A program made the position numbers and the translations under genes. 44,243 nucleotides of DNA, from assembly GCA_903850745.1 (NCBI GenBank), contig CAINMH010000095.1, positions 1 through 44,243 on the forward strand, given 5' to 3'. The stretch's first letter is position 1. Every line of letters begins with the position of its first letter. Origin of the DNA: an uncultured bacterium (GTDB lineage: Bacteria > Actinomycetota > Actinomycetes > S36-B12). The notes under the pieces are model-generated. The model made no database searches. It was not told the origin of the DNA and was given only the letters and a program-made list of their open reading frames with translations. This document shows positions 20,025-44,162 of the stretch, in pieces.

Positions 20025-22232
20025 TCAGACGCTATCTCCGCCGTCGCCGCCATTGCCGCCCACACCGTTCGCGCCGCTTCCTGCGCCACCGTTGCCGCCT
20101 GCACCACCAGCACCACCGTTTGCGCCTGATGCACCCGTGCTTCCGTCAGTGCCACCACCGCCGGACCCTGCCCCTGCCTTACCTGCCGGACCCGCCACTC
20201 CGTAGTTGACACCGCCACCAATGATTCCGTCACCACCTCGTCCACCATGGCCACCATTGGCACCTGCACCGGAACCTCCGGCCGGGCCGGAGGTTCCGCC
20301 GGTGCCCGCAGCTCCACCCGCGCCAAAGCCGGTACCGCCATTGCCCCCATCGCCACCGGCTGAGCCGTCGTGCGTCGCATCACCGTCGAAGCCACGCCCA
20401 CCGTTGCCGCCATTGCCCGTCTTGCCGCCATCGCCGCCATCGCCGTTTAAGCCGGGGCTTCCGCTCGTGGCAAATCCACTATTGCCACCTGCACCGCCAA
20501 TTCCACCTGCACCGCCATTGCCACCGTTGCCGCCCGCGACGCCGGCCGCAATGCTGTCGGCACCGTTGCCACCGGTGCCACCGTTGCCACCGACTCCGCC
20601 CTTGCCACCGTTGCCGGCTACGCCAGAGGTTGCGGAACCGCCATTGCCGCCGTTGCCCCCTGCGGCTCCGGGGACTCCGACATATCCCGCCGACCCGGAG
20701 AACCCGTCGAAACCGGGGGCACTTGATCCGCCTGCGCCACCGTCGCCGCCATTTCCGGCGTTGCCCCCCGTGGCGGCGCCGCCATGGCCACCCGCACCAC
20801 CTTTACCGCCATCAGTACCACTGGATCCCATAGACGCAGTCGAGGCGCCCGCGCCGCCATTGCCACCGTTGCCACCGTTGCCGAATGCGCCCGTTGCTCC
20901 ATGGACGTCACCCTTACCGCCAGCGCCTTCGACGCCTGCCTTGCCGCCGTCACCGCCATCGCCACCGGGGCGATCGGTGACCATGCCAGTGCTGATTCCA
21001 GCTCCACCGTCGCCACCCACACCTCCGTTGCCCGCATTGCCGCCGTTGCCACCTACGCCGTCAACACCTGCCTTGGCACTGGATCCACCGGCTGCGCCCC
21101 CGAGGCCGCCCGCGCCGCCCACGCCACCGTTGCCGCCCGCGCCACCATCGGTGCCCAGCCCTGCGCTGGACATGAATAGAGCATCGCTCCCGTCTGCGCC
21201 AGCACCACCGTTGGCGCCTTTTCCACCTTTGCCGCCAGCACCGCCAGCACCGCCCCGTCCGTCGATGCCGGTGCCGGTAGCCGCGCCGCCCGCGCCACCA
21301 TTGCCGCCCACACCGCCATTGCCGCCCGCACCGCCAGCACCGCCCGCGTTGCCGGCCGTTGCATCGGCAGGTACCGAACCGGATTCTCCGTTGCCACCGT
21401 TGCCGCCCGCGCCACCATGGCCACCATCGCCAGAGACAGTGCCGCCAGCACCACCGTTGCCGCCGTTGCCGCCCGCGAAACCTGAGGACGCCCCGATGAC
21501 TCCACCAGCGCCTAGTCGTCCGGTACTACCGTCGCCACCGTCGCCACCGTCGCCGTTCTTGCCCGCGCTTCCGCCCGCGCCACCGCGACCGCCACGTCCA
21601 TAGAAGAATGCCGCGCCACCATCGCCGCCATCGCCACCATCACCGCGAATCAAGCCACCCCGTCCGCCGGCTCCGCCACGGTGTCCGGCTACGCCAGCGC
21701 CACCGTTGCCACCGTTGCCGAATCGTCCCGCGCGCCCACCGTCACCACCGCGACAATCAGCATCGGTGCATCCCCCCACTGCATCGCTACCATCTCCGGC
21801 AATACCGCCGTACCAACCCGCATTGCCGCCGCTTCCACCGTTGTAGCCGTCGCCGCCGTTGCCGATGAGTCGCCCGCCATGACCACCCGTGCAGACTCCG
21901 ACGGTGCAGTTGTCGGCGTTGTAGGAGAACCCGTTGCCGCCCAACAGCCCCGCATTGGGGTACTTCGAATCTCCATCTTTGAAGAGCAGATCAAGGCAAG
22001 CGGCTGAGTTCTCTTTGATCTTCGCGATCACAGCTTCGACTCCGCGCACACGCGCCGAACCGGCTTGGTCCGTCGATCGAAGAAGCGGCCGCGCCATCTC
22101 GATCGCTTGCTGAACGCAATCAGTGGGGAGCGACACCGCGGCACTGGCCGGACTCGCGCTGAGTGCCGCACCGGCGAGGGCAGAGGCCCCCAGGGCGGCT
22201 ACGACAACGTTGTGTTTGCGCGAAGATGACAT
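20025..22232 (-). CDS. Exported glycine-rich PGRS-like protein 1
   Basis: A 735-residue protein. Residues 1-32 are a Sec signal peptide ([19 protein letters not shown], cleavage near SPASA-A). The next about 140 residues form a domain shared with two other proteins here: a helical part containing GSARVRGVEAVIAKIKENSA, then NAGLLGGNGFSY. Six Cys are at 39, 79, 109, 114, 155 and 160. From about 160 to the end it is almost pure GGX repeat (GGNGGAGG type). Such repeats can form polyglycine-II helices, as proposed for mycobacterial PGRS. No PE domain, LPXTG motif or C-terminal membrane anchor is present. ATG at 22232 follows AAGGAG; an earlier in-frame start would lose the signal peptide. Surface location is inferred and function is unknown. 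Confidence 0.88.
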   Translation of the reverse strand: MSSSRKHNVVVAALGASALAGAALSASPASAAVSLPTDCVQQAIEMARPLLRSTDQAGSARVRGVEAVIAKIKENSAACLDLLFKDGDSKYPNAGLLGGNGFSYNADNCTVGVCTGGHGGRLIGNGGDGYNGGSGGNAGWYGGIAGDGSDAVGGCTDADCRGGDGGRAGRFGNGGNGGAGVAGHRGGAGGRGGLIRGDGGDGGDGGAAFFYGRGGRGGAGGSAGKNGDGGDGGDGSTGRLGAGGVIGASSGFAGGNGGNGGAGGTVSGDGGHGGAGGNGGNGESGSVPADATAGNAGGAGGAGGNGGVGGNGGAGGAATGTGIDGRGGAGGAGGKGGKGANGGAGADGSDALFMSSAGLGTDGGAGGNGGVGGAGGLGGAAGGSSAKAGVDGVGGNGGNAGNGGVGGDGGAGISTGMVTDRPGGDGGDGGKAGVEGAGGKGDVHGATGAFGNGGNGGNGGAGASTASMGSSGTDGGKGGAGGHGGAATGGNAGNGGDGGAGGSSAPGFDGFSGSAGYVGVPGAAGGNGGNGGSATSGVAGNGGKGGVGGNGGTGGNGADSIAAGVAGGNGGNGGAGGIGGAGGNSGFATSGSPGLNGDGGDGGKTGNGGNGGRGFDGDATHDGSAGGDGGNGGTGFGAGGAAGTGGTSGPAGGSGAGANGGHGGRGGDGIIGGGVNYGVAGPAGKAGAGSGGGGTDGSTGASGANGGAGGAGGNGGAGSGANGVGGNGGDGGDSV

Positions 22233-22269
22233 GCGGACTCCTTGAGGAAAGCCGAGAAAACTTGGGGTG

Positions 22270-22275
22270 AACGTA
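22270..22275 (-). promoter_or_regulatory. Candidate -10 box (TACGTT) for PGRS-like gene 1
   Basis: TACGTT on the minus strand would start transcription near 22263 and give a leader of about 30 nt carrying AAGGAG. The 118-nt space is shared with the divergent glycosyltransferase gene. Confidence 0.35.
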
Positions 22276-22350
22276 CCACCGAACTGGGGGACATCTCCGA
22301 AAAAGAGTCTCGTGGGGGCGGGCCTATCAACGGTGCACCACAATGGGCCT

Positions 22351-24021
22351 ATGACGGCGCAGGCAGGGGAGAAGACCACTATCTGCCTGACCATGATCGT
22401 GCGCGACGAGGCCCACATCGTGCACGAGGTGATTGAAGCGACGGCGCCGTTTATCGACTGCTGGGTCATCGTCGACACCGGGTCAAGCGATGGCACTCAG
22501 GATGTGATCCGCCGGCTCATGGCCGAACGCGGGATCCCGGGGGAGTTGCACGAACGACCTTGGCGCGACTTCGGCCACAATCGCTCTGAGGCGCTGGAAT
22601 TAGCGCAAGGTCACGCCGACTACATCTGGATGATGGACGCCGACGACACCATCACGGGCACGATCGACTTCAGCGGGCTGAGTGCCGACGCCTACTTCAT
22701 GCGCATTCGAGATGGTCTCACGTACTGGCGCGTCATGCTGTTTCGCAACGGAGTGCCGTGGCGTTACGAGGGTGTGTTGCACGAAGTTGCACGTTGCGAT
22801 GTGCCGCATACGCAAGAACGACTTCAGGGTGACTATCAGGTGCACTCGCGACGACTCGGCGCTCGCAGCAAAGACCCGCGCAAATACGCGCGTGACGCCG
22901 AAGTGCTGCAGGCATTTGTGGATAGCAATCCTGATGACTCCCGCTCAACGTTCTATCTGGCGCAGAGCTATCTGCATTCGGGTGACTTTGCGAATGCGCG
23001 ACGTTGGTACGAACGCCGCGCGCAGATGGGCGGCTGGGACGAAGAGATCTTTCAGTCACTCCACCGAGCAGCTGAGGCCATGGAAAAACTGGGGGAGCCG
23101 TGGCCGCTCGTGCAGCAGGCGTATCTCGCTGCGTGGAGTTATCGTCCCACTCGTGCTGAGTCACTGCACGCGATTGCGCGCTGGTATCGCATCAATGAGC
23201 AGTACGTACTTGGTCATCACTTCGCGCAGGCGGCCGCGCGGATCCCACTGCCGGTTGAGGACGCCCTGTTCGTGATCGAGAGCGTCTATCAATGGCAGGC
23301 GCTTGATGAGCAAGCAGTATGTGCGTCGTGGATCGGCAAGTCAGCGGAGTCTTTTGCGATCTGTCGACAATTGCTGAGTCAGCCGGAGATTCCTCATGAG
23401 GATCGCCAGCGCATTGCGGCCAATCGCGATCTTGCGGTGCCGCACATGCTGGAGCGTGCAGCAGCGCGACCGTCCGAAGAGGTGGTGCAGTCTCTTTTCG
23501 GGCCGGGCGCTGATGTGATGGTCACGCTGGTTGCGGGTGCGGATCTCGCGAGTGCGGAGCTGTCGATTAATTCGTTCATAAATTGCTGCCTCGACCGCGA
23601 ACGGATCAGTCGATTTGTTGTGGTGTGCGCGGACTTGTCCACGACCGATCAGGCGCGACTGCTGCAGCACTATCCGTTTGTGGAGTGTGTCGATGCACCT
23701 AGTGTCGGTGACTCGCGCTACTGGTTGTATCTCGCGAAGGATTACCGGTTTTTTGCTCCGGAGGCGTATCTCACTCGCATGATCACGGTGCTCGAAGCGG
23801 AGCCCGAGATTGCGCAAGTGGGCGTCAACTTTGACGATGCCTCGACTTTAAGTGGCACATGTGCACCAGAAGAATCGGTGCGCCGTACGGCACTTGGACA
23901 GCGCTACGTCATTGCAGGCACTGAGATAACTGGCCCCGTCATGATCGACACAGTTCGTTTCGATGACCAAGTCGCCTCAGCCGCCACGCTCGACGAAGTG
24001 TTGTGCGTGGCGGCTGAATGA
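22351..24021 (+). CDS. Family 2 glycosyltransferase with TPR-like region
   Basis: A 556-residue protein. Residues 10-110 are a GT-A fold: CLTMIVRDEAHIVHEVI, VIVDTGSSDGTQDVI, then HNRSEALELAQGHADYIW and the DAD metal/nucleotide-sugar motif at 96-98. A helical middle (STFYLAQSYLHSGDFANARRW and following) looks like TPR or SEL1 repeats. A C-terminal about 170 residues of uncertain fold includes FVVVCADLSTTDQARLLQHY and may be a second glycosyltransferase-like domain. No signal peptide or membrane segment is seen. ATG at 22351 is used; no ribosome binding site is evident. It is divergent from PGRS-like gene 1, and its stop directly abuts that of gene 2. This suggests it modifies surface proteins or glycans of this locus, but the acceptor is unknown. 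Confidence 0.85.
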   Translation: MTAQAGEKTTICLTMIVRDEAHIVHEVIEATAPFIDCWVIVDTGSSDGTQDVIRRLMAERGIPGELHERPWRDFGHNRSEALELAQGHADYIWMMDADDTITGTIDFSGLSADAYFMRIRDGLTYWRVMLFRNGVPWRYEGVLHEVARCDVPHTQERLQGDYQVHSRRLGARSKDPRKYARDAEVLQAFVDSNPDDSRSTFYLAQSYLHSGDFANARRWYERRAQMGGWDEEIFQSLHRAAEAMEKLGEPWPLVQQAYLAAWSYRPTRAESLHAIARWYRINEQYVLGHHFAQAAARIPLPVEDALFVIESVYQWQALDEQAVCASWIGKSAESFAICRQLLSQPEIPHEDRQRIAANRDLAVPHMLERAAARPSEEVVQSLFGPGADVMVTLVAGADLASAELSINSFINCCLDRERISRFVVVCADLSTTDQARLLQHYPFVECVDAPSVGDSRYWLYLAKDYRFFAPEAYLTRMITVLEAEPEIAQVGVNFDDASTLSGTCAPEESVRRTALGQRYVIAGTEITGPVMIDTVRFDDQVASAATLDEVLCVAAE

Positions 24022-27000
24022 CTACACGCCTGCCGCACCAGTGCCGCCGGGGATCGCGGTGCCGAAGCCGATTGCCGATGCCGCTCCGCCGCTAGCACCG
24101 CCTGGGCCTGCAGTGCCGCCTTGGGAATCGCCACCAGTGCCACCCGTGCCACCCGCTGCGGTTGAGCCGGCCGTGCTGTTGACGAGTGCGGCACCACCTT
24201 GGCCGCCGATGGCTCCGGTGCTGCCGGCTCTGCCATTGCCACCCTTGCCACCACTGCCCCCGGTTGCCAACGTTCCGGTGCCGCTGGTTGCGCTCGCCGA
24301 GCCACCCACGCCTCCCGCGCCCGCTATGCCCGAAGTTCCGGCTCGGCCGCCTTGACCGCCATCGCCGCCCTTAGCCGTGCTTGCCGCACCTGCACTGGCT
24401 GCTGACGTTGCGGCACCACCACTGCCACCAGTGCCACCCGTGCCACCCGTGCCACCGCCACCAACACCACCCGTGCCACCAACACCACCCGTTGCAGTCG
24501 AACCTGCAGTGTCCGCGTTTGCAGCGCCACCTGCGCCACCTCGGCCGCCCAGGCTGTTGGTACCGCCTGCGCCACCTACGCCACCTACGCCACCCTCGGC
24601 CATGCCAGTGGCGCCAGTGAGTGTCGCAGCGCCGCCAGCTCCACCATCGCCGCCGATGGTCTGACTCGATCCACCCGCGCCACCCGCGCCGCCAATAGCC
24701 TTTGTAGCGCTGCCAGAACCGGTTGCGCTGCCGCCAGCGCCACCCGTGCCGGGGTTTCCGGCGCCCATAAAGACGACGCCACCGGTGCCACCTGCGCCAC
24801 CGGTCGGAGTACCCGTTGTGTCAGTGGCTGCACCGCCCGCACCGCCGGCACCAGCGTTGCCGCCGTTGAAGGCGTTGCCACCGCGACCACCTACGCCGCC
24901 CACCGTTGTGCCACTGCCGCCAGTGCCACCATTGCCACCATTGCTACCCGCACCGCCGGTGCCGCCATGGCCACCATCGGAACCAGCCCCAGACGCATTG
25001 TTGAATCCAGCGCCTCCGTTGCCACCGACGCCGGAGATACCCACTGCGCCGGTGCTCCCCGCGATGCCTATCGCTCCACCGGCCGCTGCGCCAGCAGCGC
25101 CAGCAGCGCCAGCAGATCCGCCGCCTGCACCGGCTGCACCGGCGCCGCCCTTACTACCTGCCACACCGGATGTACCGCCGTTACCGCCGCTAGCTCCATT
25201 GCCACCGGTGCCACCATTGCCACCGGTGCCACCTGTGGTGCCAGCACTATTGCCAGCGCCACCAGCGCCACCAGCGGCGCTACCGCCGCCTGCGCCACCA
25301 GTAAATCCGAGGCGCGCTGCTCCGCCGCTCGCGGCGGAGCCAGCATTGCCGCCTGCGCCGCCGTTGCCACCACGGCCGGGCACACTGTTTGTGAACGCTC
25401 CGACTGTGCCGCCTTCGCCGCCTGGCGCACCAACCCCGCCAGCGCCTGCCCCGCCACCAGCTCCTCCAGTGGCTGCAAGACCGCCATTGCCGCCGTTACC
25501 GCCGGCGGAGGCGTCACCTCCGTTGCCGGCTGTGCCTGTCGCACCGCCTACCGCACCGCCAGCGCCACCCTTACCGCCCAGGCCACCCGCTCCACCTGGA
25601 GCGCCGTCAGGCTGGTCGCCCGCAGCGAAGCCGTTGCCGCCATTGCCACCGGCACCCGCAGCACCGCCAGCACCGCCAGCACCGGCCGTGCCACCTAAGG
25701 TATTGAGGCCGCCCGCGCCACCAGCGCCGCCGTTGCCGCCGGCCGAGCCCTGCTGGGCGGCGACTCCGGTGGTTGCGTTGTTGCCGTTGTAGCCCGCGCC
25801 ACCAGCGCCGCCCTTGCCGCCTGCGCCAGCTGTACCGGTGATTGAGTTGCCGCCGGTGCCGCCCGCGCCACCCGAGGTGCCAGCGACACCGAGACTGCCG
25901 GCAAGACCCGCACCACCCGCACCACCCGTGCCACCGTTGGATCCGGAACTGTTCGCGCCCGTGGTGCCTGCCGTTAAGCCGGTGCCACCTGCGCCACCGG
26001 ATACACCCGCAACACCTGCACCACCGGCGCCACCTGTGCCGCCGGCAACCGCGGCAGGTGCGTCTCCGCCGGCTCCGCCTGCGCCACCGGCACTCGACAG
26101 ACCAGCTGCGCCACCGGTGCCGCCGGTGCCGGCATTGCCACCGGACCCGCCGGTGCCACCGGCGCCACCGAGGCTGCCGGTCGCGCCATTGCCGCCTGTG
26201 CCGGCGCCACTGCCTGTGCCGCCTGCGCCTGCTGCTCCCGCATTGCCACCTGCGCCACCGACGCCAGCGATGCCGACCACCGTCGCGCCGCCAACACCAC
26301 CTGCGCCACCCTTGCCGCCTTGAGATCCATCCGTGCCGGTACCTCCGACCGCCCCTGTTCCACCTTGGCCGCCTGTGCCACCTACTCCTGCGGCTCCGTA
26401 GAAGGAGTCGCCACCGTTGCCACCTGCGCCGCCAGCACCGCCCGCGACACCAGTCGTGTCAGAGGCCCACCCAGCACCGCCCGCGCCACCGTTGCCACCG
26501 TTGCCTACGTTGCCTGAAATTGCAGTACCGCCGCCTGAACCGGCAATACCCGCTTCGCCACCCTTTCCGCCGGTTGTGCCTGCCGCATTGCCACTCGATG
26601 AGCCGGCGCCACCTGTGCCACCGGCGCCACCATTGCCCGCGTTGCCACCGTTAGCGTCTGTGCCACTCGTAGCACTGCCTGCTCCTGTGCCACCGATGCC
26701 ACCGTCGCCACCGCGCCCCGCATTGCCCCCGTTGCCACCAGCAAGAGCAGTGACCGCATCGCCGCTGCCACCAGCACCGCCGTTGCCACCAGCACCGCCA
26801 GCGGCGCCGTTGCCGCCATTGCCATCGGATCCCGTCGAGCCACCAGTGCCGCCAGCTGCGCCACCGAGGGCACCGGCGCCACCATCGCCACCGTTGCCAC
26901 CCTTGCCACCTGTCGAGCCGTTCTCGCCTGAAGCCGAACTGCCGGCGTAGCCCATGCCGCCGGTGCCACCGCCGCCGGCGTTGCCGCCATTGCCACCGGT

Positions 27001-29598
27001 GCCACCGTCGCCATCTGTGCCGCTACCTGCGTTGCCGGCGCTTGCTCCACCCGCTGCGCCTGCTCCACCCGCTCCACCACTACCGGCATCGCCGCCGTTG
27101 CCACCGGTGCCGCCTGCGGTCGTGGGACTCGAGCCCATTGCGCCGTAGAGGCCCGCGCCACCGTCTGCGCCGTTGCCACCTGCACCGCCGTTGCCGGCGT
27201 TACCGCCCGCAGCGTCAGTACCGGCTGCCGCGCCCTTGCCGCCTGCTGCGCCACCTGCGCCCCCGCTGCCGCCCGCACCTGCCGCGCCACCGACACCACC
27301 GTCGCCGCCATCAGTTCCTGATTCGCCGGCAGTCGCTCCGGCAGTGCCTGTGACTCCGTCGCCTGCGTTGCCGCCATTGCCGCCATTGCCAGCCGTGCCG
27401 CCCGCACCACCATTGCCAGAAGTGGGCGTGCCGTCACCCATACCGGGCATGCCTCCGTTGCTGCCCGCACCACCGTTGCCGCCTAGTGCGCCCGCACCGC
27501 CAGCCTGGCCGTTGGGGCTCACCGACGACGTGCCGTCTGCACCGTCTGCACCGTTGCCGCCATTACCGCCCGCACCACCGGCTGCACCATTGCCGCCATT
27601 GCCTGCCAGGCCCCCGGATCCGCCATGGTTGCCGACGCTTGCGCCGCCGAAGCCGCCTTGACCGGCATTGCCGGCTGTGCCGCCATCGCCACCAGCCGAG
27701 CCACTCTCGCCGGGAGTCGTCGCGGTGTAGCCATCGCCACCGTCGCCACCTGCACCTGCGTTGCCCGCGGTGCCGCCATTGCCACCATTGCCACTCGAAC
27801 CGTCAGCTGCTGTGCCACCACCGGCTCCGTAGGCCCCAGCTGTGGCGCCTAAGCCGCCGTTGCCACCGTTGCCACCTGTGCCGCCGGTGGTGCCTGGTGT
27901 GGCTGAATCCGTACCGGCAGATCCACTGGCACCCTTGACACCATCTCGGCCATTGCCGCCGTTGCCACCGTTGCCACCGTTGCCACCGACCGAGTCAGCG
28001 CCTGTCGATGAACCCGTGCCGCCTACGCCGCCGTCGCCCCCGGCACCCGCCGCGCCACCGCTACCGCCGCTGCCACCGTTCAAGCCGAAACCTGTGGCGC
28101 CGAAGCCACCCGTGCCACCGTTGCCACCGTTGCCGGCCGCACCCGCATCTCCACCGGCGCCAGCGGTGCCGACCCCGCCTGAACCGTAACCCGGTGCGCC
28201 GCCTGTGCCACCGTTGCCGGCGTTGCCCCCATCCCGGCCCGCACCACCGGTGCTACCAGCCGAACCGAACACTCCACTGCCGCCATTGCCGCCGTCGCCG
28301 CCCGTTGCACCCTTGCCGCCGTCGCTACCAGAACCCCCTTTGCCCGAGACGCTGCCGGAACCAGCTGCGCCGCCGTAGCCACCTGTGCCACCGGCTCCGC
28401 CGTTGCCACCGTCGGTGCCGGGAATTCCATTGTTTGCCCCTGTTGCGCCACCAGTGCTGCCGTCTTTACCGACGTATCCGTCGCCACCCACGCCACCATC
28501 GCCGCCCACACCACCGTTGCCGGCATTGCCGCCGACACCGTCGAGCGATTTGCCTGAACCTTCGCCGGACTGGCCGCCCGCGCCACCTGCGCCACCCCAG
28601 CCTGCTGCTCCGCCATTGCCGCCGTCGCCTCCGGCAACACCCGCGGTAGTGGAATCTGCACCCGCTGCACCATCGCCACCCGCGCCACCAGCGCCACCTG
28701 CGCCACCAGCGCCACCGTTGCCCGCGAGGCCTTCTGTGCCGACTCCCGGTGCGCTGCCACCGTTGCCACCGTTGCCACCGGAAGTGCCTGAACCGCCTGT
28801 GCTGCCCGCGGTGCCGTTGCCCCCAGGCACTGCTGCGTCGACGCCCGCAGCGCCTGTTACGCCGTAAGCACCCGCACCGCCTACGCCGCCCGCGCCACCA
28901 TCACCGGTGATGGAGCCACCCGCACCACCATTGCCACCGTGTCCACCGCGACGTCCGGGGATGCCTTCACCACCATCGCCGCCTTCACCACCATCGCCAC
29001 GCAGTAGTCCGCCGTGGCCACCGTTGCCACCGCGATGTCCTTCGACACCTTCGCCACCTGCACCACCGGTACCCATGCGTCCGGCGCGACCACCGTTGCC
29101 GCCACGACATTCGTTGTTGGTGCAACCGACAGCTGCATCGCCACCATCGCCTGCGACGCCGCCGTACCAGCCTGCGTTGCCACCGGTGCCACCGTTGTAG
29201 CCGTCACCGCCATTGCCAGTGAGCTTTCCGGCGTTGCCACCATTGCATGCGGCGACTCCAGGACACGTGCCAGAGTCGTAAGAAAATCCATCGCCACCGA
29301 GCAGACCTGCATCAGGATTGTCTGCAGTGCCATCTCGAAAGAGAACGTCAACGCACGAGGCGGATTTGTCTTTGATACGAGCAATAACTTGCTCCACACC
29401 ACGCTTGCGTGCAGATCCCGGAGTAGTGATCGTCTCCCGCAAATTGCGCGACATGTCTAGTGCTTCATCCACGCAATTAGCTTGATCCGCGTCGGCTGCT
29501 CCCGCTGTGGAAGTTGAACCGGCGACGAGTGCTGCACCTGTCAGCGCAGAGGCGCTAAGTGCAGCAACGATGAGACCACGCTTGCGGGGAGACGACAT
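24022..29598 (-). CDS. Giant exported glycine-rich PGRS-like protein 2
   Basis: A 1858-residue paralogue of the proteins at 20025 and 29738. The signal peptide is [20 protein letters not shown] and onward, with cleavage near residue 35. The N-terminal domain holds six Cys at 42, 82, 112, 118, 159 and 164, exactly the spacing of protein 3. It includes [31 protein letters not shown] and [12 protein letters not shown]. About 1690 residues of GGX repeat follow, with no anchoring motif at the C-terminus ([14 protein letters not shown]). The repeats are unusually rich in Ala/Asn/Thr at X, with scattered Asp that could bind Ca2+. ATG at 29598 follows AAAGG. The length makes it one of the largest genes in a compact region. 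It is probably a surface or matrix protein; this is inference. Confidence 0.88.
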
Positions 29599-29642
29599 GA
29601 AAAACCTTTCGAGCAGTACTAGGGACGTCCTAGATATTCTGG

Positions 29643-29648
29643 ACGTTA
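29643..29648 (-). promoter_or_regulatory. Candidate -10 box (TAACGT) for PGRS-like gene 2
   Basis: TAACGT on the minus strand would give a start near 29636 and a 38-nt leader. A near-palindrome, CTAGG-GACGT-CCTAG, at 29619-29633 would overlap the start of the transcript. Confidence 0.35.
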
Positions 29649-29688
29649 CCTACATCTGATCGAATAGCAAGAGGGGCGCGAAAACTGC

Positions 29689-29726
29689 TTCACACGTGTG
29701 AATTTTTGCCGTGCTCCACACGTGTT
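29689..29726. promoter_or_regulatory. Tandem ACACGTGT palindromes upstream of PGRS-like gene 2
   Basis: TTCACACGTGTGAA (29689-29702) is a perfect 14-bp palindrome. A second CACACGTGT core lies at 29717-29725, centred 26 bp away, or about 2.5 helical turns. Both are in the 139-nt space before gene 2, about 60 and 85 nt upstream of its likely transcription start. They look like paired binding sites for a dimeric regulator. The first could also act as a hairpin after gene 3. Confidence 0.45.
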
Positions 29727-29737
29727 AATCATTTCAG

Positions 29738-31849
29738 CTATCCGGCACCTTGCGAAGCACCCGTTGTTCCGGGAGAGCCGCCGAAACTTGTGCCCCCAGC
29801 GCCACCGACTCCATTCGGTAAGCCGCCATTGCCACCGTTACCGCCATTGCCGGTGCCTGCTGTCGCACCGCCGCCCGCGCCCCCGTTGCCGCCGGTAGAC
29901 GTAAGAGCTCCCGTCGCACCGCCGCCGTTGCCGCCCGCCCCGCCGCTGTTGTAAGTGCCACTGCTCCCGGTTCCACCGGCACCGCCGTATGCATCGCCAG
30001 CAGCTGTGGCATTGCCTCCCGTACCTCCGATGCCTGCTAACCCGCTGAAGCCGCCGCCACCGCCATCTCCGCCTGCACCACCGTTACCGGCCTGCGCATC
30101 AGCGCTTGAAGCCATATTCATAGCTTTTGCGCTGCCACCGGCGCCACCGTTGCCCGAGGCCGGTCCGCCGTATCCACCATCGCCACCGTTGCCGCCCTGG
30201 GCTTCGATTGAGGACACTTCAGCCGCAAGGGACTCTGCCGCGCCTCCGTTGCCGCCCGTTCCGCCTTGGCACATTGAACAGTTGCCGCCCTGACCGCCCT
30301 CGCCGCCTGTCGCGACGTAATCACTACTACTAGCTGCGCCGCCGTTGCCGCCGTTGCCGGGGCCGGTGACCGGACTTTTGCCGCCGTCGCCGCCGTTGCC
30401 GCCGCTTGCAATGGCGCTCCCTGGTGCCGTCGTAGTCGCGGCACCGCCGTTGCCACCGTTGCCGCCAGTGGCATTGAAATTACTGCTGTCGCCACCAACG
30501 CCGCCGTGTCCGCCCACCGCATCGCCGCCGGTACTCGTCGCGCTGCCGCCATCGCCGCCGTTGCCGGCTGATCCTGTGCCGAAGGCGCCTGGGTTGCCAC
30601 CGTTGCCGCCGTTGCCACCTGTGATCGCTATGACGTCGGTTGAACTAGCACTTCCGCCAGCGCCACCTGCGCCACCACTGCCGATAGTACCGGCGTTGCC
30701 ACCGTCGCCACCGTTGCCACCATCACCCTTGGCGTTGGAGTAGCCAGCGCCACCGGCTCCGCCGTTGCCGCCGGAGTTTGCAGAAGCGCCACCCTTACCG
30801 CCACTACCGCCGGTTGAACCACTGCCTCCCGATCCGCCAGCGCCCGCGGTGCCTGGATTGCCGCCGTTGCCGCCGTGGCCGCCGTCTGGCGTGAGCGCAT
30901 TTCCTGCCGCTCCTTTGCCGCCGTTGCCACCGGGGCCTTCAGCACCACCATTTCCGCCGTCGCCACCTGCACCAGATGCGCCTTCGCCTCGAGCGAGTCC
31001 ACCGTTGCCACCGTTGCCGCCATTGGATCCGTTGCCGCCAGTTGCGCCATTAGCGCCCGATGAGTCAGGTCCAGTGCCCCCGATGCCATCTGCGCCATTC
31101 GCGCCCGTGGCACCGTCACCACCTGCACCACCGTCACCACCTGCGCCACCGTCGCCGGTGAGAGTGCCACCTAAACCGCCATTGCCGCCATGGCCGCCCC
31201 GGTCACCGGCGCCGCCAGCTCCGCCGTCGCCGCCAATGCCACCATTGCCGCGCAGCAGACCGCCGTCGCCGCCGGTGCCACCACGGTGGCCGTCAATTCC
31301 GTCGCCACCTGCGCCGCCGGTGCCGTAGCGCCCTGCGCGACCACCCGCGCCACCGCGACATTCGGCGTTGGTGCATATCTCACCGCCATCACCACCGTTG
31401 CCTGCGACACCGGCATACCAGCCCGCGTTGCCGCCTGTGCCCCCGTTCCAGCCGTCGCCACCGTCACCTTCGAGCTTGCCGGCGTTGCCGCCGTTGCAGG
31501 GTGCAGTGCCGCCGCATGTGCCTGCGGTGTAGGAAAACCCGTCACCGCCGAGGATTCCGGCGTTAGGGCTCTTCGCCGTGCCATCACGGAAAAGTATGTC
31601 AACACATGCAGCGGACTTTTCCTTGATACGTGCAATCACCCGTGCAACGCCGCGTTCACGCGCAGAGCCTGGTGTCTCCACCGTTTGACGAAGATAACGC
31701 GACATCTTCATCGCTTGGTCGATGCACGCATCCACCACGGGATCTTGCGCAGACACAGCAGACGCGGGAGCGGCCACGAGTGCGGCACCTGTCAGCGCCG
31801 AAGCGCCTAGTGCAGCAACGATCACACCGCGCTTACGGGGAGCAGACAT
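29738..31849 (-). CDS. Exported glycine-rich PGRS-like protein 3
   Basis: A 703-residue paralogue. The signal peptide is [20 protein letters not shown] and onward, with cleavage near PASA-V. The shared N-terminal domain has Cys at 42, 82, 112, 118, 159 and 164. It includes [32 protein letters not shown] and [12 protein letters not shown]. The GGX repeat domain runs to the C-terminus. Unlike its two relatives it has an extra CxxC pair (CSMC, Cys524/Cys527) in the middle of the repeats. Several stretches are less regular and Ser/Ala-rich (for example [17 protein letters not shown]). GAGG lies about 8 nt before the ATG. It is 71 nt downstream of a methyltransferase gene on the same strand. Function is unknown and surface location is inferred. 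Confidence 0.88.
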
Positions 31850-31920: not shown

Positions 31921-32961
31921 CTAGATCGATTTGCGGTAAACCAACCAACGCATCTCGATAGGGGAGTCCTGGCGAGGCACATCGAATACGTCCTGACCAC
32001 TCACCCAGCCCTCATACCAACTCGTGGGCGGCCACGCAGTCGCCGGCAGGTGAGCCTTCTCAAAATCGTAGACGGATTCGTCCGAGTCGAGTTCGAGTGA
32101 AAGCCCTGCACTGGCGGCGGCAACCTCCGCAGGCGTGTACATGCCCGTATAGGCCTGCTGCCCGAGTTCGCGCGCGGCTGCGTCGGGCGTGTAACCCGTT
32201 CGTGACACAAACACATTGAGCACGAGACGCCCACCTGGTGCCAGTGTGTGTGCGGCGATCTCAAAGACGGTGCGCAACTGATCTTGAGTACGGAAGTCGG
32301 AAGTCACCTCAGACACGACGATCAAGCCGTAGTCGCGACGAAGATCACCGATAGTCGCAAACACATCACGCTCGAGCACGCGCAACGGAAGTCCTTCGCG
32401 TGCTGCATCAAGTCGCAACGACTCTGCAAACTTCGGAGTCATCTCCACTGCATCAACGGGATGACCTCGTCGCGCGAGAGCCAACGAGTTGCGGCCGGTG
32501 CCTGCGCCGACATCGAGCACCGGACATTCGGCTGGATCAACGGCGTCGACAGCGAGGGCGAGTACTCGCGCGTCAGGCTCGGTGCCGAAGTAGGGCGCCT
32601 CGCGCGTCGCGACCCAGTTGTCGTACGCCTGATCAAGGCTCGCCCAGTGCGCGTGCACGTTGTAGTTGACGGTGAGGCCAGTGGGGGAGTCGTACGTGAT
32701 GACAATGTCGGAGCGCGGCGACGCGGCGAACGCTTCAGCGAGTTGGCCCGCGATCACTTCGCGCAAGTGCGTGAGTTGGTCGGGCGTGAAGTTGACGCCA
32801 ATAGCCGCAAACGCGCGGTCGCACATGGCGACGTAGTCCTCGAGCATTCCAGGTACGGCCGGCACGACGATGCGCCCACTTGCGACGGCGCGGCGATGAA
32901 GCCGGCGAAGCATGGCGTCGTGCAGGGCTGACTCCGGCAGAACCACAGCAGGCTTTTCCAT
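31921..32961 (-). CDS. Class I SAM-dependent methyltransferase
   Basis: A 346-residue protein with an N-terminal helical region (residues 1-about 145, including ESALHDAMLRRLHRRAVASG and VNYNVHAHWASLDQAYDNW). A Rossmann methyltransferase domain follows: motif I VLDVGAGTGRNSLALARRG, acidic VDAVEMTP, then LPLRVLERDVFATI and LAPGGRLVLNVFVSRTG. The acceptor is not identifiable. The C-terminal part has TSWYEGWVSGQDVFDVPR. It lies 25 nt after the usp gene and 71 nt before PGRS-like gene 3, on the same strand, so it may be co-expressed with them. A role in modifying surface proteins is possible but unproven. Confidence 0.85.
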   Translation of the reverse strand: MEKPAVVLPESALHDAMLRRLHRRAVASGRIVVPAVPGMLEDYVAMCDRAFAAIGVNFTPDQLTHLREVIAGQLAEAFAASPRSDIVITYDSPTGLTVNYNVHAHWASLDQAYDNWVATREAPYFGTEPDARVLALAVDAVDPAECPVLDVGAGTGRNSLALARRGHPVDAVEMTPKFAESLRLDAAREGLPLRVLERDVFATIGDLRRDYGLIVVSEVTSDFRTQDQLRTVFEIAAHTLAPGGRLVLNVFVSRTGYTPDAAARELGQQAYTGMYTPAEVAAASAGLSLELDSDESVYDFEKAHLPATAWPPTSWYEGWVSGQDVFDVPRQDSPIEMRWLVYRKSI

Positions 32962-43370: not shown

Positions 43371-44162
43371 ATGAGCCAAGTCATCGACGTGAAAGCGGCA
43401 ATCGCGGCGGAGCCGCGACTAGGTCGCCTACGAGCATGGAACATCGGCGCAGGCATCTTCCACCTCGTTCAGGCGGTCTTGGTGCTGATCCTCGCCAACG
43501 ACTTCTCAATCCCGATCTTGACCTCCTACATGGATGGCCCGCCTGGCACCACGCCGAGCGCACCGGTGACCCTCCTGGACGTTCCACTTGCGATTGGCGT
43601 TGCGCTCTTCTTCCTGCTGTCGGCTCTCTTCCACTTTGTCGTGAGCATCCCGCCGTTCTACGCGCGTTATATCGGGGGTCTCGCGCAGGGCCGCAACTAC
43701 TTCCGCTGGGTCGAATACTCGATCTCAAGCTCGGTGATGATCGTGTTGATCTGCCAGATCTGCGGCGTCTCGGAAGCGGCTGCTCTCATCGCAATCTTTG
43801 GTGTCAACGCCTCGATGATTCTCTTTGGCTGGTTGCAGGAGAAGTACGAGAAGCCAGGCGAGGGCCGAATGCTGCCCTTCCTCTTCGGCTGCATCACCGG
43901 TGTCGTGCCGTGGCTGATCATCGCGCTGTATGTGATCGGGCCGAACAACCAATCAACTGTCACGACTCCCGGATTTGTCTACGGAATCATCGCGAGTCTC
44001 TTCATCTTCTTCAATTGCTTCGCCATCGTGCAATGGCTGCAGTACAAGAAGAACCCGATTAGCTACCTCTCCGGCGAAAAGGCATACATCATCTTGAGCC
44101 TGGTCGCGAAGTCTGCGCTCGCGTGGCAGATCTTCACAGGAACGCTCGTCCCTGCGAGCTAA
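43371..44162 (+). CDS. Heliorhodopsin
   Basis: A 263-residue seven-helix retinal protein of the heliorhodopsin family, which sits inverted in the membrane (N-terminus in the cytoplasm). Retinal Schiff-base Lys247 is in LSLVAKSALAWQIF, and the counterion Glu115 is in FRWVEYSISSSVM. His31 (AGIFHLVQ) and His88 (ALFHF) match the conserved His pair. SAPVTLLDVPLAI, FGVNASMILFGWLQEKY and PGFVYGIIASLFIFF are diagnostic and quite unlike type-1 pump rhodopsins. Members show slow photocycles and no clear ion pumping; the role is debated (signalling, or regulation of partner enzymes). AAGGAG lies 7 nt before the ATG. No carotenoid or retinal genes are adjacent. Confidence 0.96.
   Translation: MSQVIDVKAAIAAEPRLGRLRAWNIGAGIFHLVQAVLVLILANDFSIPILTSYMDGPPGTTPSAPVTLLDVPLAIGVALFFLLSALFHFVVSIPPFYARYIGGLAQGRNYFRWVEYSISSSVMIVLICQICGVSEAAALIAIFGVNASMILFGWLQEKYEKPGEGRMLPFLFGCITGVVPWLIIALYVIGPNNQSTVTTPGFVYGIIASLFIFFNCFAIVQWLQYKKNPISYLSGEKAYIILSLVAKSALAWQIFTGTLVPAS

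What the first reader, a model, noticed from the sequence alone, without database searches (positions are those of the whole stretch)
20025..31849. A three-member family of exported PGRS-like proteins with a six-cysteine head domain instead of a PE domain
Three paralogues (735, 1858 and 703 aa) share a signal peptide, a helical segment with GSAR-RGV--VIA-IK, an AG(L/I)LGG-GFSY motif and six Cys. In proteins 2 and 3 the Cys are at identical positions (42, 82, 112, 118, 159, 164), and protein 1 follows the same order. Then come hundreds of GGX repeats. Mycobacterial PGRS proteins have a similar helical head plus Gly-rich body, but their head is PE, exported by ESX. Here export should be Sec-dependent and the head disulfide-bonded. 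I know of no described family with this head, but I cannot search.
Basis: partly seen in the sequence, partly recalled or inferred. Interest (0 to 1): 0.88.

Follow-up and report, generated by a model that had tools for sequence, protein, structure and literature searches.

The report
Exported disulfide-capped PGRS rods outside mycobacteria
Three neighbouring genes in an uncultured actinobacterium encode exported, glycine-rich rod proteins of the PGRS type best known from mycobacteria, but with a signal peptide and a small disulfide-pinned helical head in place of the mycobacterial PE export domain.

Summary
In detail: three paralogues (735, 1858, 703 aa; a fourth copy on another contig) carry a signal peptide, six Cys and a GGX body. 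The 'six-cysteine head' is composite. Residues ~37-86 form a short helical domain pinned by C42/C82; it matches no Pfam, NCBIfam or PDB entry, occurs in 12 of 166 genomes of the order and a few Acidimicrobiia, and every hit examined sits on a PGRS protein. Residues ~88-165 are not new: they are the N-terminal cap of a PGRS domain, equivalent to GRPLI in PE_PGRS proteins and shared with many PE-less, mostly mycobacterial PGRS proteins. In 67 proteins each Cys site holds zero or two Cys, never one, so the predicted disulfides are 42-82, 112-118 and 159-164. AlphaFold folds the cap and first repeats as a polyglycine-II bundle matching springtail antifreeze proteins. p2 has full-length orthologues in two other genera; heads are under purifying selection. 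The genome shows no PE domain or recognisable ESX ATPase. A methyltransferase gene directly upstream of p3 recurs upstream of PGRS genes in three other loci. Best reading: Sec-exported, disulfide-stabilised surface or secreted PGRS rods, a new variant of a known kind. Cellular role is inferred.

The parts
20025..22232 (-). p1, 735-aa PGRS protein with signal peptide and six-Cys N-terminus
   Evidence: ATG at 22232 with AAGGAG ribosome site
24022..29598 (-). p2, 1858-aa PGRS protein; orthologues of 1822 aa (L027) and 2266 aa (L157) in two other genera with conserved C-terminal third
29738..31849 (-). p3, 703-aa PGRS protein; start lies about 70 bp after the methyltransferase gene, same strand
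31757..31849 (-). p3 signal peptide (about residues 1-31; KR-rich start, Ala-rich hydrophobic core, PASA cleavage-like end)
   Evidence: sequence; cleavage site inferred, no predictor available
31592..31741 (-). p3 helical head, residues 37-86: helices 37-58, 68-78, 80-86 in the model; holds C42 and C82
   Evidence: AlphaFold2; alignments A3/A4
31355..31582 (-). p3 PGRS N-cap, residues 90-165: [12 protein letters not shown] motif, C112/C118, GGNAGWY, C159/C164
29738..31354 (-). p3 GGX body (from residue 166, stop codon included), polyglycine-II bundle predicted for its first about 75 residues
29341..29490 (-). p2 helical head, residues 37-86
   Evidence: alignment A3
29104..29331 (-). p2 PGRS N-cap, residues 90-165
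21984..22133 (-). p1 helical head, residues 34-83
   Evidence: alignment A3
21750..21974 (-). p1 PGRS N-cap, residues 87-161
31921..32961 (-). class I SAM-dependent methyltransferase directly upstream of p3 on the same strand; the same pair occurs in L023/L172, L060 and L067
22351..24021 (+). family-2 glycosyltransferase with TPR-like part, divergent from p1 and convergent with p2; adjacency not seen in relatives

Best explanation
These are PE-less PGRS proteins, exported by a signal peptide (Sec most likely). After export three disulfides form locally: 42-82 ties the short helical head together, and 112-118 and 159-164 lock the N-cap of the glycine-rich domain. The cap starts a polyglycine-II bundle in which GGX triplets run in antiparallel left-handed helices, giving a long, flat, rigid rod or sail with variable X residues and loops along its faces and edges. 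The head stands where the PE domain stands in PE_PGRS proteins and most likely serves as terminal cap and/or wall contact, while the rod acts as a non-catalytic surface spacer, shield or adhesive. Shown here by computation: export-type signal, Cys pairing pattern, cap homology, predicted fold of the first about 240 residues, purifying selection on the head, absence of a detectable PE domain. Inferred: oxidation, surface location, and the adhesive/shield role.
For: Signal-type N-termini in the window proteins and in relatives with complete starts; Candidatus Microthrix-type relatives L060/L067 carry a VSAC lipobox-like start, so they look membrane-anchored. 67 proteins: each of three Cys sites has 0 or 2 Cys, never 1 (with/without: 23/44, 67/0, 22/42). 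Cys-type caps versus mycobacterial PE_PGRS caps: hhalign probability 97%, E 6e-11, four body-segment controls 4-26%; intermediates L142/L149/L150 combine SNG...AGLLIGNG with the PE-type continuation. AlphaFold2 pLDDT about 82-97 from residue 71 to about 240; VIA-align to springtail antifreeze 7jjv_B Z 14.0, 1.9 A over 112 residues, and snow-flea 2pne Z 10.6, 1.2 A over 78. Head dN/dS 0.07-0.33 where measurable; p2 orthologues. No PE domain in the genome, and the only EccC match is a partial 104-bit hit far below the 509-bit cutoff, of a kind also seen in 9 control genomes.
Against: No protein, expression or localisation data. No sorting motif or C-terminal anchor was seen, so surface retention is unexplained; they may simply be released. 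AlphaFold confidence falls below 50 at residues 245-274 and 290-300 of p3, and the bodies beyond residue 300 were not modelled. Disulfide geometry could not be measured (no coordinates). The head may instead bind a ligand. PE and EccC absence rests on one 99%-complete draft genome, and the PE search had no mycobacterial positive control.
Confidence: 0.6

Rival explanations
1. Ice-binding or cryoprotective secreted proteins: the polyglycine-II bundle presents a flat ordered-water face, as in springtail antifreeze proteins.
For: The closest solved folds are exactly the springtail antifreeze proteins; some relatives come from lake metagenomes (record titles).
Against: The same fold is modelled for PE_PGRS domains (PMC9436101, PMC10216338) in warm-host pathogens, so the fold does not predict ice binding; X residues are mainly A, N, D, T and S, with no ice-face pattern tested; relatives also come from other habitats.
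Confidence: 0.07
2. Host- or predator-directed surface effector, acting like mycobacterial PE_PGRS in immune contact.
For: Shared PGRS cap and body type.
Against: No PE domain or ESX-type export detected; no sign here of a host-associated life; fewer hydrophobic foot motifs (0.8-1.9 per 100 aa in the four paralogues versus 2.0-3.1 in the five least hydrophobic PE_PGRS bodies; the six more hydrophobic PE_PGRS rows score 0.5-1.8), so mycomembrane docking is not indicated.
Confidence: 0.06
3. Low-complexity expansion with little function: GGX tracts grown by replication slippage behind a conserved exported head.
For: Many short DNA tandem repeats of 9 and 18 bases; lengths vary widely (360-2266 aa).
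Against: Open frame over 5.6 kb; p2 orthologues in three genera keep non-Gly residues in register in the C-terminal third at 57-76% identity; a predicted fold matching a real one.
Confidence: 0.1
4. The head is a specific ligand- or wall-binding module and the GGX part is only a stalk, with an upstream methyltransferase that modifies the exported protein or its ligand.
For: Head under strong constraint and always on PGRS in the hits examined; methyltransferase-PGRS pair in four loci across two classes; methyltransferase in 6 of 166 genomes, 4 of which have the head (hypergeometric P 2e-4, ignoring relatedness).
Against: Four of eight methyltransferase loci have no PGRS neighbour; the methyltransferase family is unassigned; the head is short with no obvious pocket.
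Confidence: 0.15

Closest known systems
PE_PGRS proteins of Mycobacterium (PGRS domain, Pfam PF21526, GRPLI motif)
   Same: Glycine-rich PGRS body; N-cap in register with GRPLI-GNG...GG.GG.L.GNGG; polyglycine-II fold as modelled by Berisio and Delogu (PMC9436101).
   Different: No PE domain or ESX export detected; signal peptide; cysteines in the cap (the aligned PE_PGRS caps have none); extra helical C42-C82 head; sparser hydrophobic foot motifs; PF21526 scores below its cutoff.
PE-less PGRS proteins of Mycolicibacterium, Williamsia and related MAGs (L029-L078)
   Same: Signal-type start, GTA..PNAGLLxGNGFSY cap, Cys at +22/+28, sometimes +69/+73.
   Different: They lack the helical C42-C82 head and have a long disordered-looking linker instead; some carry extra C-terminal domains.
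Springtail (snow flea, Granisotoma) antifreeze proteins
   Same: Predicted polyglycine-II helical bundle, Z 14.0 and 10.6.
   Different: Eukaryotic, 81-126 residues; convergent GGX fold is likely; no evidence of ice binding here.
Candidatus Microthrix-type and Acidimicrobiales PGRS proteins (L060, L067, L045)
   Same: Same architecture: Cys-flanked helical head (-45/-9 or -51/-9), cap, GGX body; L060/L067 also share the upstream methyltransferase.
   Different: L060/L067 have a lipobox-like start and no third Cys pair; head identity to p3 only 25-26%.

Membership tests
PE_PGRS proteins | N-terminal PE domain | tested here: not met
   No Pfam PE hit in the three proteins; none in the genome
PE_PGRS proteins | GRPLI motif at the start of the PGRS domain | tested here: not met
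   Replaced by NAG(L/I)LGG(N/D)GFSY in the same register
PE_PGRS proteins | Export by ESX-5 | tested here: inconclusive
   EccC model gives only a partial 104-bit match, cutoff 509 bits; similar sub-cutoff matches in 9 control genomes
PGRS domain (PF21526) | Score above Pfam cutoff of 27 bits | tested here: not met
   Best 16.2 bits in p3, 21.0 in the genome scan; the Acidimicrobiales relative G751/L045 passes at 31.0
PGRS-type domain (broad sense) | Cap homologous to the PE_PGRS cap, followed by GGX repeats | tested here: met
   hhalign 97% against four body controls at 4-26%; intermediates L142, L149, L150. The head-type caps alone give 78% against PE_PGRS caps
Polyglycine-II bundle fold | Predicted fold matching solved PG-II bundles | tested here: met
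   Z 14.0 and 10.6, rmsd 1.9 and 1.2 A; modelled for p3 residues 33-300 only
Antifreeze proteins of springtails | Ice binding | not testable with these tools
   Fold only; no activity data
Sortase-anchored surface proteins | C-terminal LPXTG-type motif, hydrophobic stretch and basic tail | tested here: not met
   None at the C-termini, although the genome has two sortases

The most novel reading that the evidence does not exclude
PGRS domains are an old actinobacterial invention that began as exported, disulfide-capped rods; mycobacteria later lost the cysteine locks and coupled the rod to PE for ESX export. The helical C42-C82 head would then be a separate head type for Sec export, with a methyltransferase partner in some lineages.
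Probability: 0.3. Interest if true: 0.75.

Novelty: new variant of a known kind. Interest (0 to 1): 0.58.

Why it matters
Papers in the literature call PE/PPE/PGRS proteins exclusive to Mycobacterium (for example PMC6016250, PMC8430768). PGRS-type rods with a signal peptide and a conserved disulfide cap in other actinobacterial lineages separate the rod from PE and ESX, offer a possible outgroup for how PE_PGRS arose, and may give disulfide-locked, Sec-exported constructs that are easier to make and solve than PE_PGRS proteins, whose structures have resisted experiment (PMC9436101).

Tried and rejected
A single six-cysteine head domain: rejected, because Cys 112-164 belong to the cap shared with proteins that lack the helical part. 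PE domain or ESX substrate: no PE hit, no above-cutoff EccC. Sortase anchoring: no C-terminal motif. Phage or plasmid origin: no tblastn matches with a head-and-cap query in phages or a mycobacterial cap query in plasmids; no viral structure match at E 0.001 or better. Known fold for the helical head: Foldseek best E 4, VIA-align best Z 5.3 over a 71-residue model of mean pLDDT 75, so no claim either way. Solved relatives by sequence: none credible. The adjacent glycosyltransferase as a conserved partner: not found beside PGRS in relatives, apart from a 25% match in L045. Direct HMM match of the window caps to the PE cap in the GRPLI register: not significant; homology rests on the profile comparison and intermediates. 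The first body controls for hhalign were stale output and were redone, where two of six controls failed for lack of an alignment. No paper found on PE-less or non-mycobacterial PGRS proteins in the open library searched; subscription journals are not covered.
Full report
What is there. Three paralogous genes lie on the minus strand at 20025-22232, 24022-29598 and 29738-31849, encoding 735, 1858 and 703 aa. All start with a signal-type N-terminus, carry Cys at 39/79/109/114/155/160 (p1) or 42/82/112/118/159/164 (p2, p3), and continue as a 44-47% glycine GGX body with a clear period of three. p3 has two further Cys at 524 and 527. A fourth copy lies on contig C2 of the same 2.57 Mb, 201-contig genome.

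Real genes. Head-and-cap dN/dS between paralogues and with the same-genus genome G001 is 0.07-0.33 in the pairs where dS is not saturated. p2 has full-length orthologues in two other genera of the family, L027 (1822 aa) and L157 (2266 aa); over the last third of p2 the three proteins agree at 57-76% per 60-residue block, including non-glycine residues in register. This argues against a simple slippage product, although short 9- and 18-base tandem repeats are plentiful in the DNA.

The head is two things. An alignment of relatives and a scan of public genomes split it. First, residues about 37-86: three short helices in the model (37-58, 68-78, 80-86) bounded by C42 and C82. This part is found in 12 of 166 genomes of the order, in no other genome of 395 in the class, and in one other of 396 in the phylum, an Acidimicrobiales genome; Candidatus Microthrix-type records L060 and L067 also have it, with altered spacing. 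Every genomic hit lies in an open frame that also holds the GGX cap or repeats; L018/L120 is cut by its contig end just after the cap motif begins. Second, residues about 88-165: GTA..PNAGLLxGNGFSY, C112/C118, GGNAGWY, C159/C164. This part is widespread, mostly in Mycolicibacterium, other mycobacteria and Williamsia, on PE-less proteins whose complete N-termini look like signal peptides.

The second part is the PGRS N-cap. Aligned with mycobacterial PE_PGRS caps, AGLLxGNG sits on GRPLIGNG, and the following GG.GG.L.GNGG.G pattern is kept. Profile comparison of 58 caps of the Cys type with 11 PE-type caps gives 97% probability, E 6e-11; four sets of body segments from the window proteins give 4-17% against the same profile and 7-26% against the wider one. 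The caps of the helical-head proteins alone give 78%, aligned in the later part only, and the window proteins alone do not match the PE-cap HMM in the GRPLI register. The link therefore rests on the mycobacterial Cys-type caps and on intermediates L142, L149 and L150 in mycobacterial genomes, which join the SNG..AGLLIGNG start to the PE-type continuation and match the PE-cap HMM at E 2.3e-10 or better from about GLLIGNG onwards. Berisio and colleagues assign GRPLI a locking role at the start of the PGRS sandwich (PMC10216338); here disulfides may do that job (inference).

Disulfides. Over 67 proteins with a recognisable cap, the upstream site holds two Cys in 23 and none in 44; the middle site two in 67; the third site two in 22 and none in 42 (three cut off by contig ends). 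No protein has one. The motif used to select them does not require Cys. In two mycobacterial proteins (L061, L072) the upstream pair is a differently spaced C-x6-C and is probably unrelated. The pattern supports pairs 42-82, 112-118 and 159-164.

Fold. AlphaFold2 on p3 residues 33-300 with 26 sequences gave mean pLDDT 80, with block means of about 82-97 from residue 71 to 240 and below 50 at residues 245-274 and 290-300. The glycine-rich part matches solved polyglycine-II bundles: Granisotoma antifreeze protein 7jjv_B, Z 14.0, 1.9 A over 112 residues, and snow-flea antifreeze 2pne, Z 10.6, 1.2 A over 78 residues. This is the fold Berisio and Delogu propose for PGRS domains (PMC9436101). The helical head alone gave a moderate model (pLDDT 75) and no significant structural match; nothing can be claimed about its fold. 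Bodies beyond residue 300 were not modelled.

Export. No PE domain was found in the genome (the control set holds no mycobacterium, so sensitivity is not proven). The only EccC match is a partial 104-bit hit against a 509-bit cutoff, of the kind also seen in nine control genomes. Sec export is therefore the simplest reading; Tat is possible in relatives with RR-type starts. There is no sortase motif at the C-termini although the genome has two sortases. Microthrix-type relatives have a VSAC lipobox-like start and may be lipoproteins.

Neighbours. A class I methyltransferase gene at 31921-32961 lies about 70 bp upstream of p3 on the same strand. The same pair occurs in G027 (L023/L172; methyltransferase 65% identical) and in the Microthrix-type loci L060 and L067 (58% and 56%). 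In four other genomes of the order the methyltransferase has no PGRS neighbour. Co-occurrence in the order is 4 of 6 against a base of 12 of 166, hypergeometric P 2e-4 without correction for relatedness. Its substrate is unknown. The glycosyltransferase at 22351-24021 was not found beside PGRS genes in relatives, apart from a 25% match in L045.

Function. Best reading: exported, disulfide-stabilised rods at or beyond the cell surface, with a non-catalytic spacer, shield or adhesive role; the head caps or anchors. The rods have fewer hydrophobic foot motifs than PE_PGRS bodies of pure PGRS type: the four paralogues have 0.8-1.9 per 100 aa against 2.0-3.1 in the five least hydrophobic mycobacterial rows. 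The comparison is mixed: six more hydrophobic mycobacterial rows, probably with other C-terminal domains in the 400-residue slice, score 0.5-1.8, and relatives L020 and L024 reach 2.0 and 2.5. Ice binding is a live but weak rival because the closest solved folds are antifreeze proteins.

Known or new. The PGRS body and cap are known kinds, although PF21526 itself scores below cutoff here. The helical Cys head was not found in Pfam, NCBIfam or, by sequence, the PDB. PE_PGRS membership fails on the PE domain and on GRPLI. I found no paper on PE-less or non-mycobacterial PGRS proteins; the library is open-access only. Filed as a new variant of a known kind.

Taxonomy. I did not place it more closely.

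Noticed in passing
window 43371-44162: A heliorhodopsin gene (PF18761, E 9e-95) near the right end. In the same-genus genome G001 (L154) the matching gene is followed about 1.2 kb later by a PGRS gene, so the window contig may end at another PGRS copy (assembly break); contig C2 carries one near its own end.
   Followed up: partly
L067: Record titled Bifidobacterium breve MAG carries a methyltransferase-PGRS locus and flanking genes very like the Candidatus Microthrix locus L060; the label is probably wrong.
   Followed up: no
L172:2241-6595: Two ABC transporters, the first with a C39 peptidase domain as in peptide export, lie upstream of the methyltransferase-PGRS pair in G027.
   Followed up: partly
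L021 and L022, protein C-termini: Both bodies contain a similar VSTSxP...PDGxFTYTPT insert although they come from genomes of different families (f1 and f6).
   Followed up: no
L031, L036, L039, L040, L044, L051, L058, L071: Several PE-less PGRS proteins end in similar non-GGX C-terminal segments (AFM/LxxWQxxxYxxxxV).
   Followed up: no
L045 about residues 576-643: The Acidimicrobiales protein has an internal stretch that matches the PE-cap HMM at 36.7 bits and PF21526 above cutoff, far from its own Cys-type cap.
   Followed up: no
G000 control: The Pfam PE model rang above cutoff in the E. coli control genome, which is unexpected for a mycobacterial domain.
   Followed up: no
G096 and G132 (L012, L017, L091, L096, L099, L101): Two genomes of one genus in another family of the order hold mycobacterial-type PGRS caps (NGYSW); both are fragmented with 7% contamination, so true presence or mis-binning is open.
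   Followed up: no
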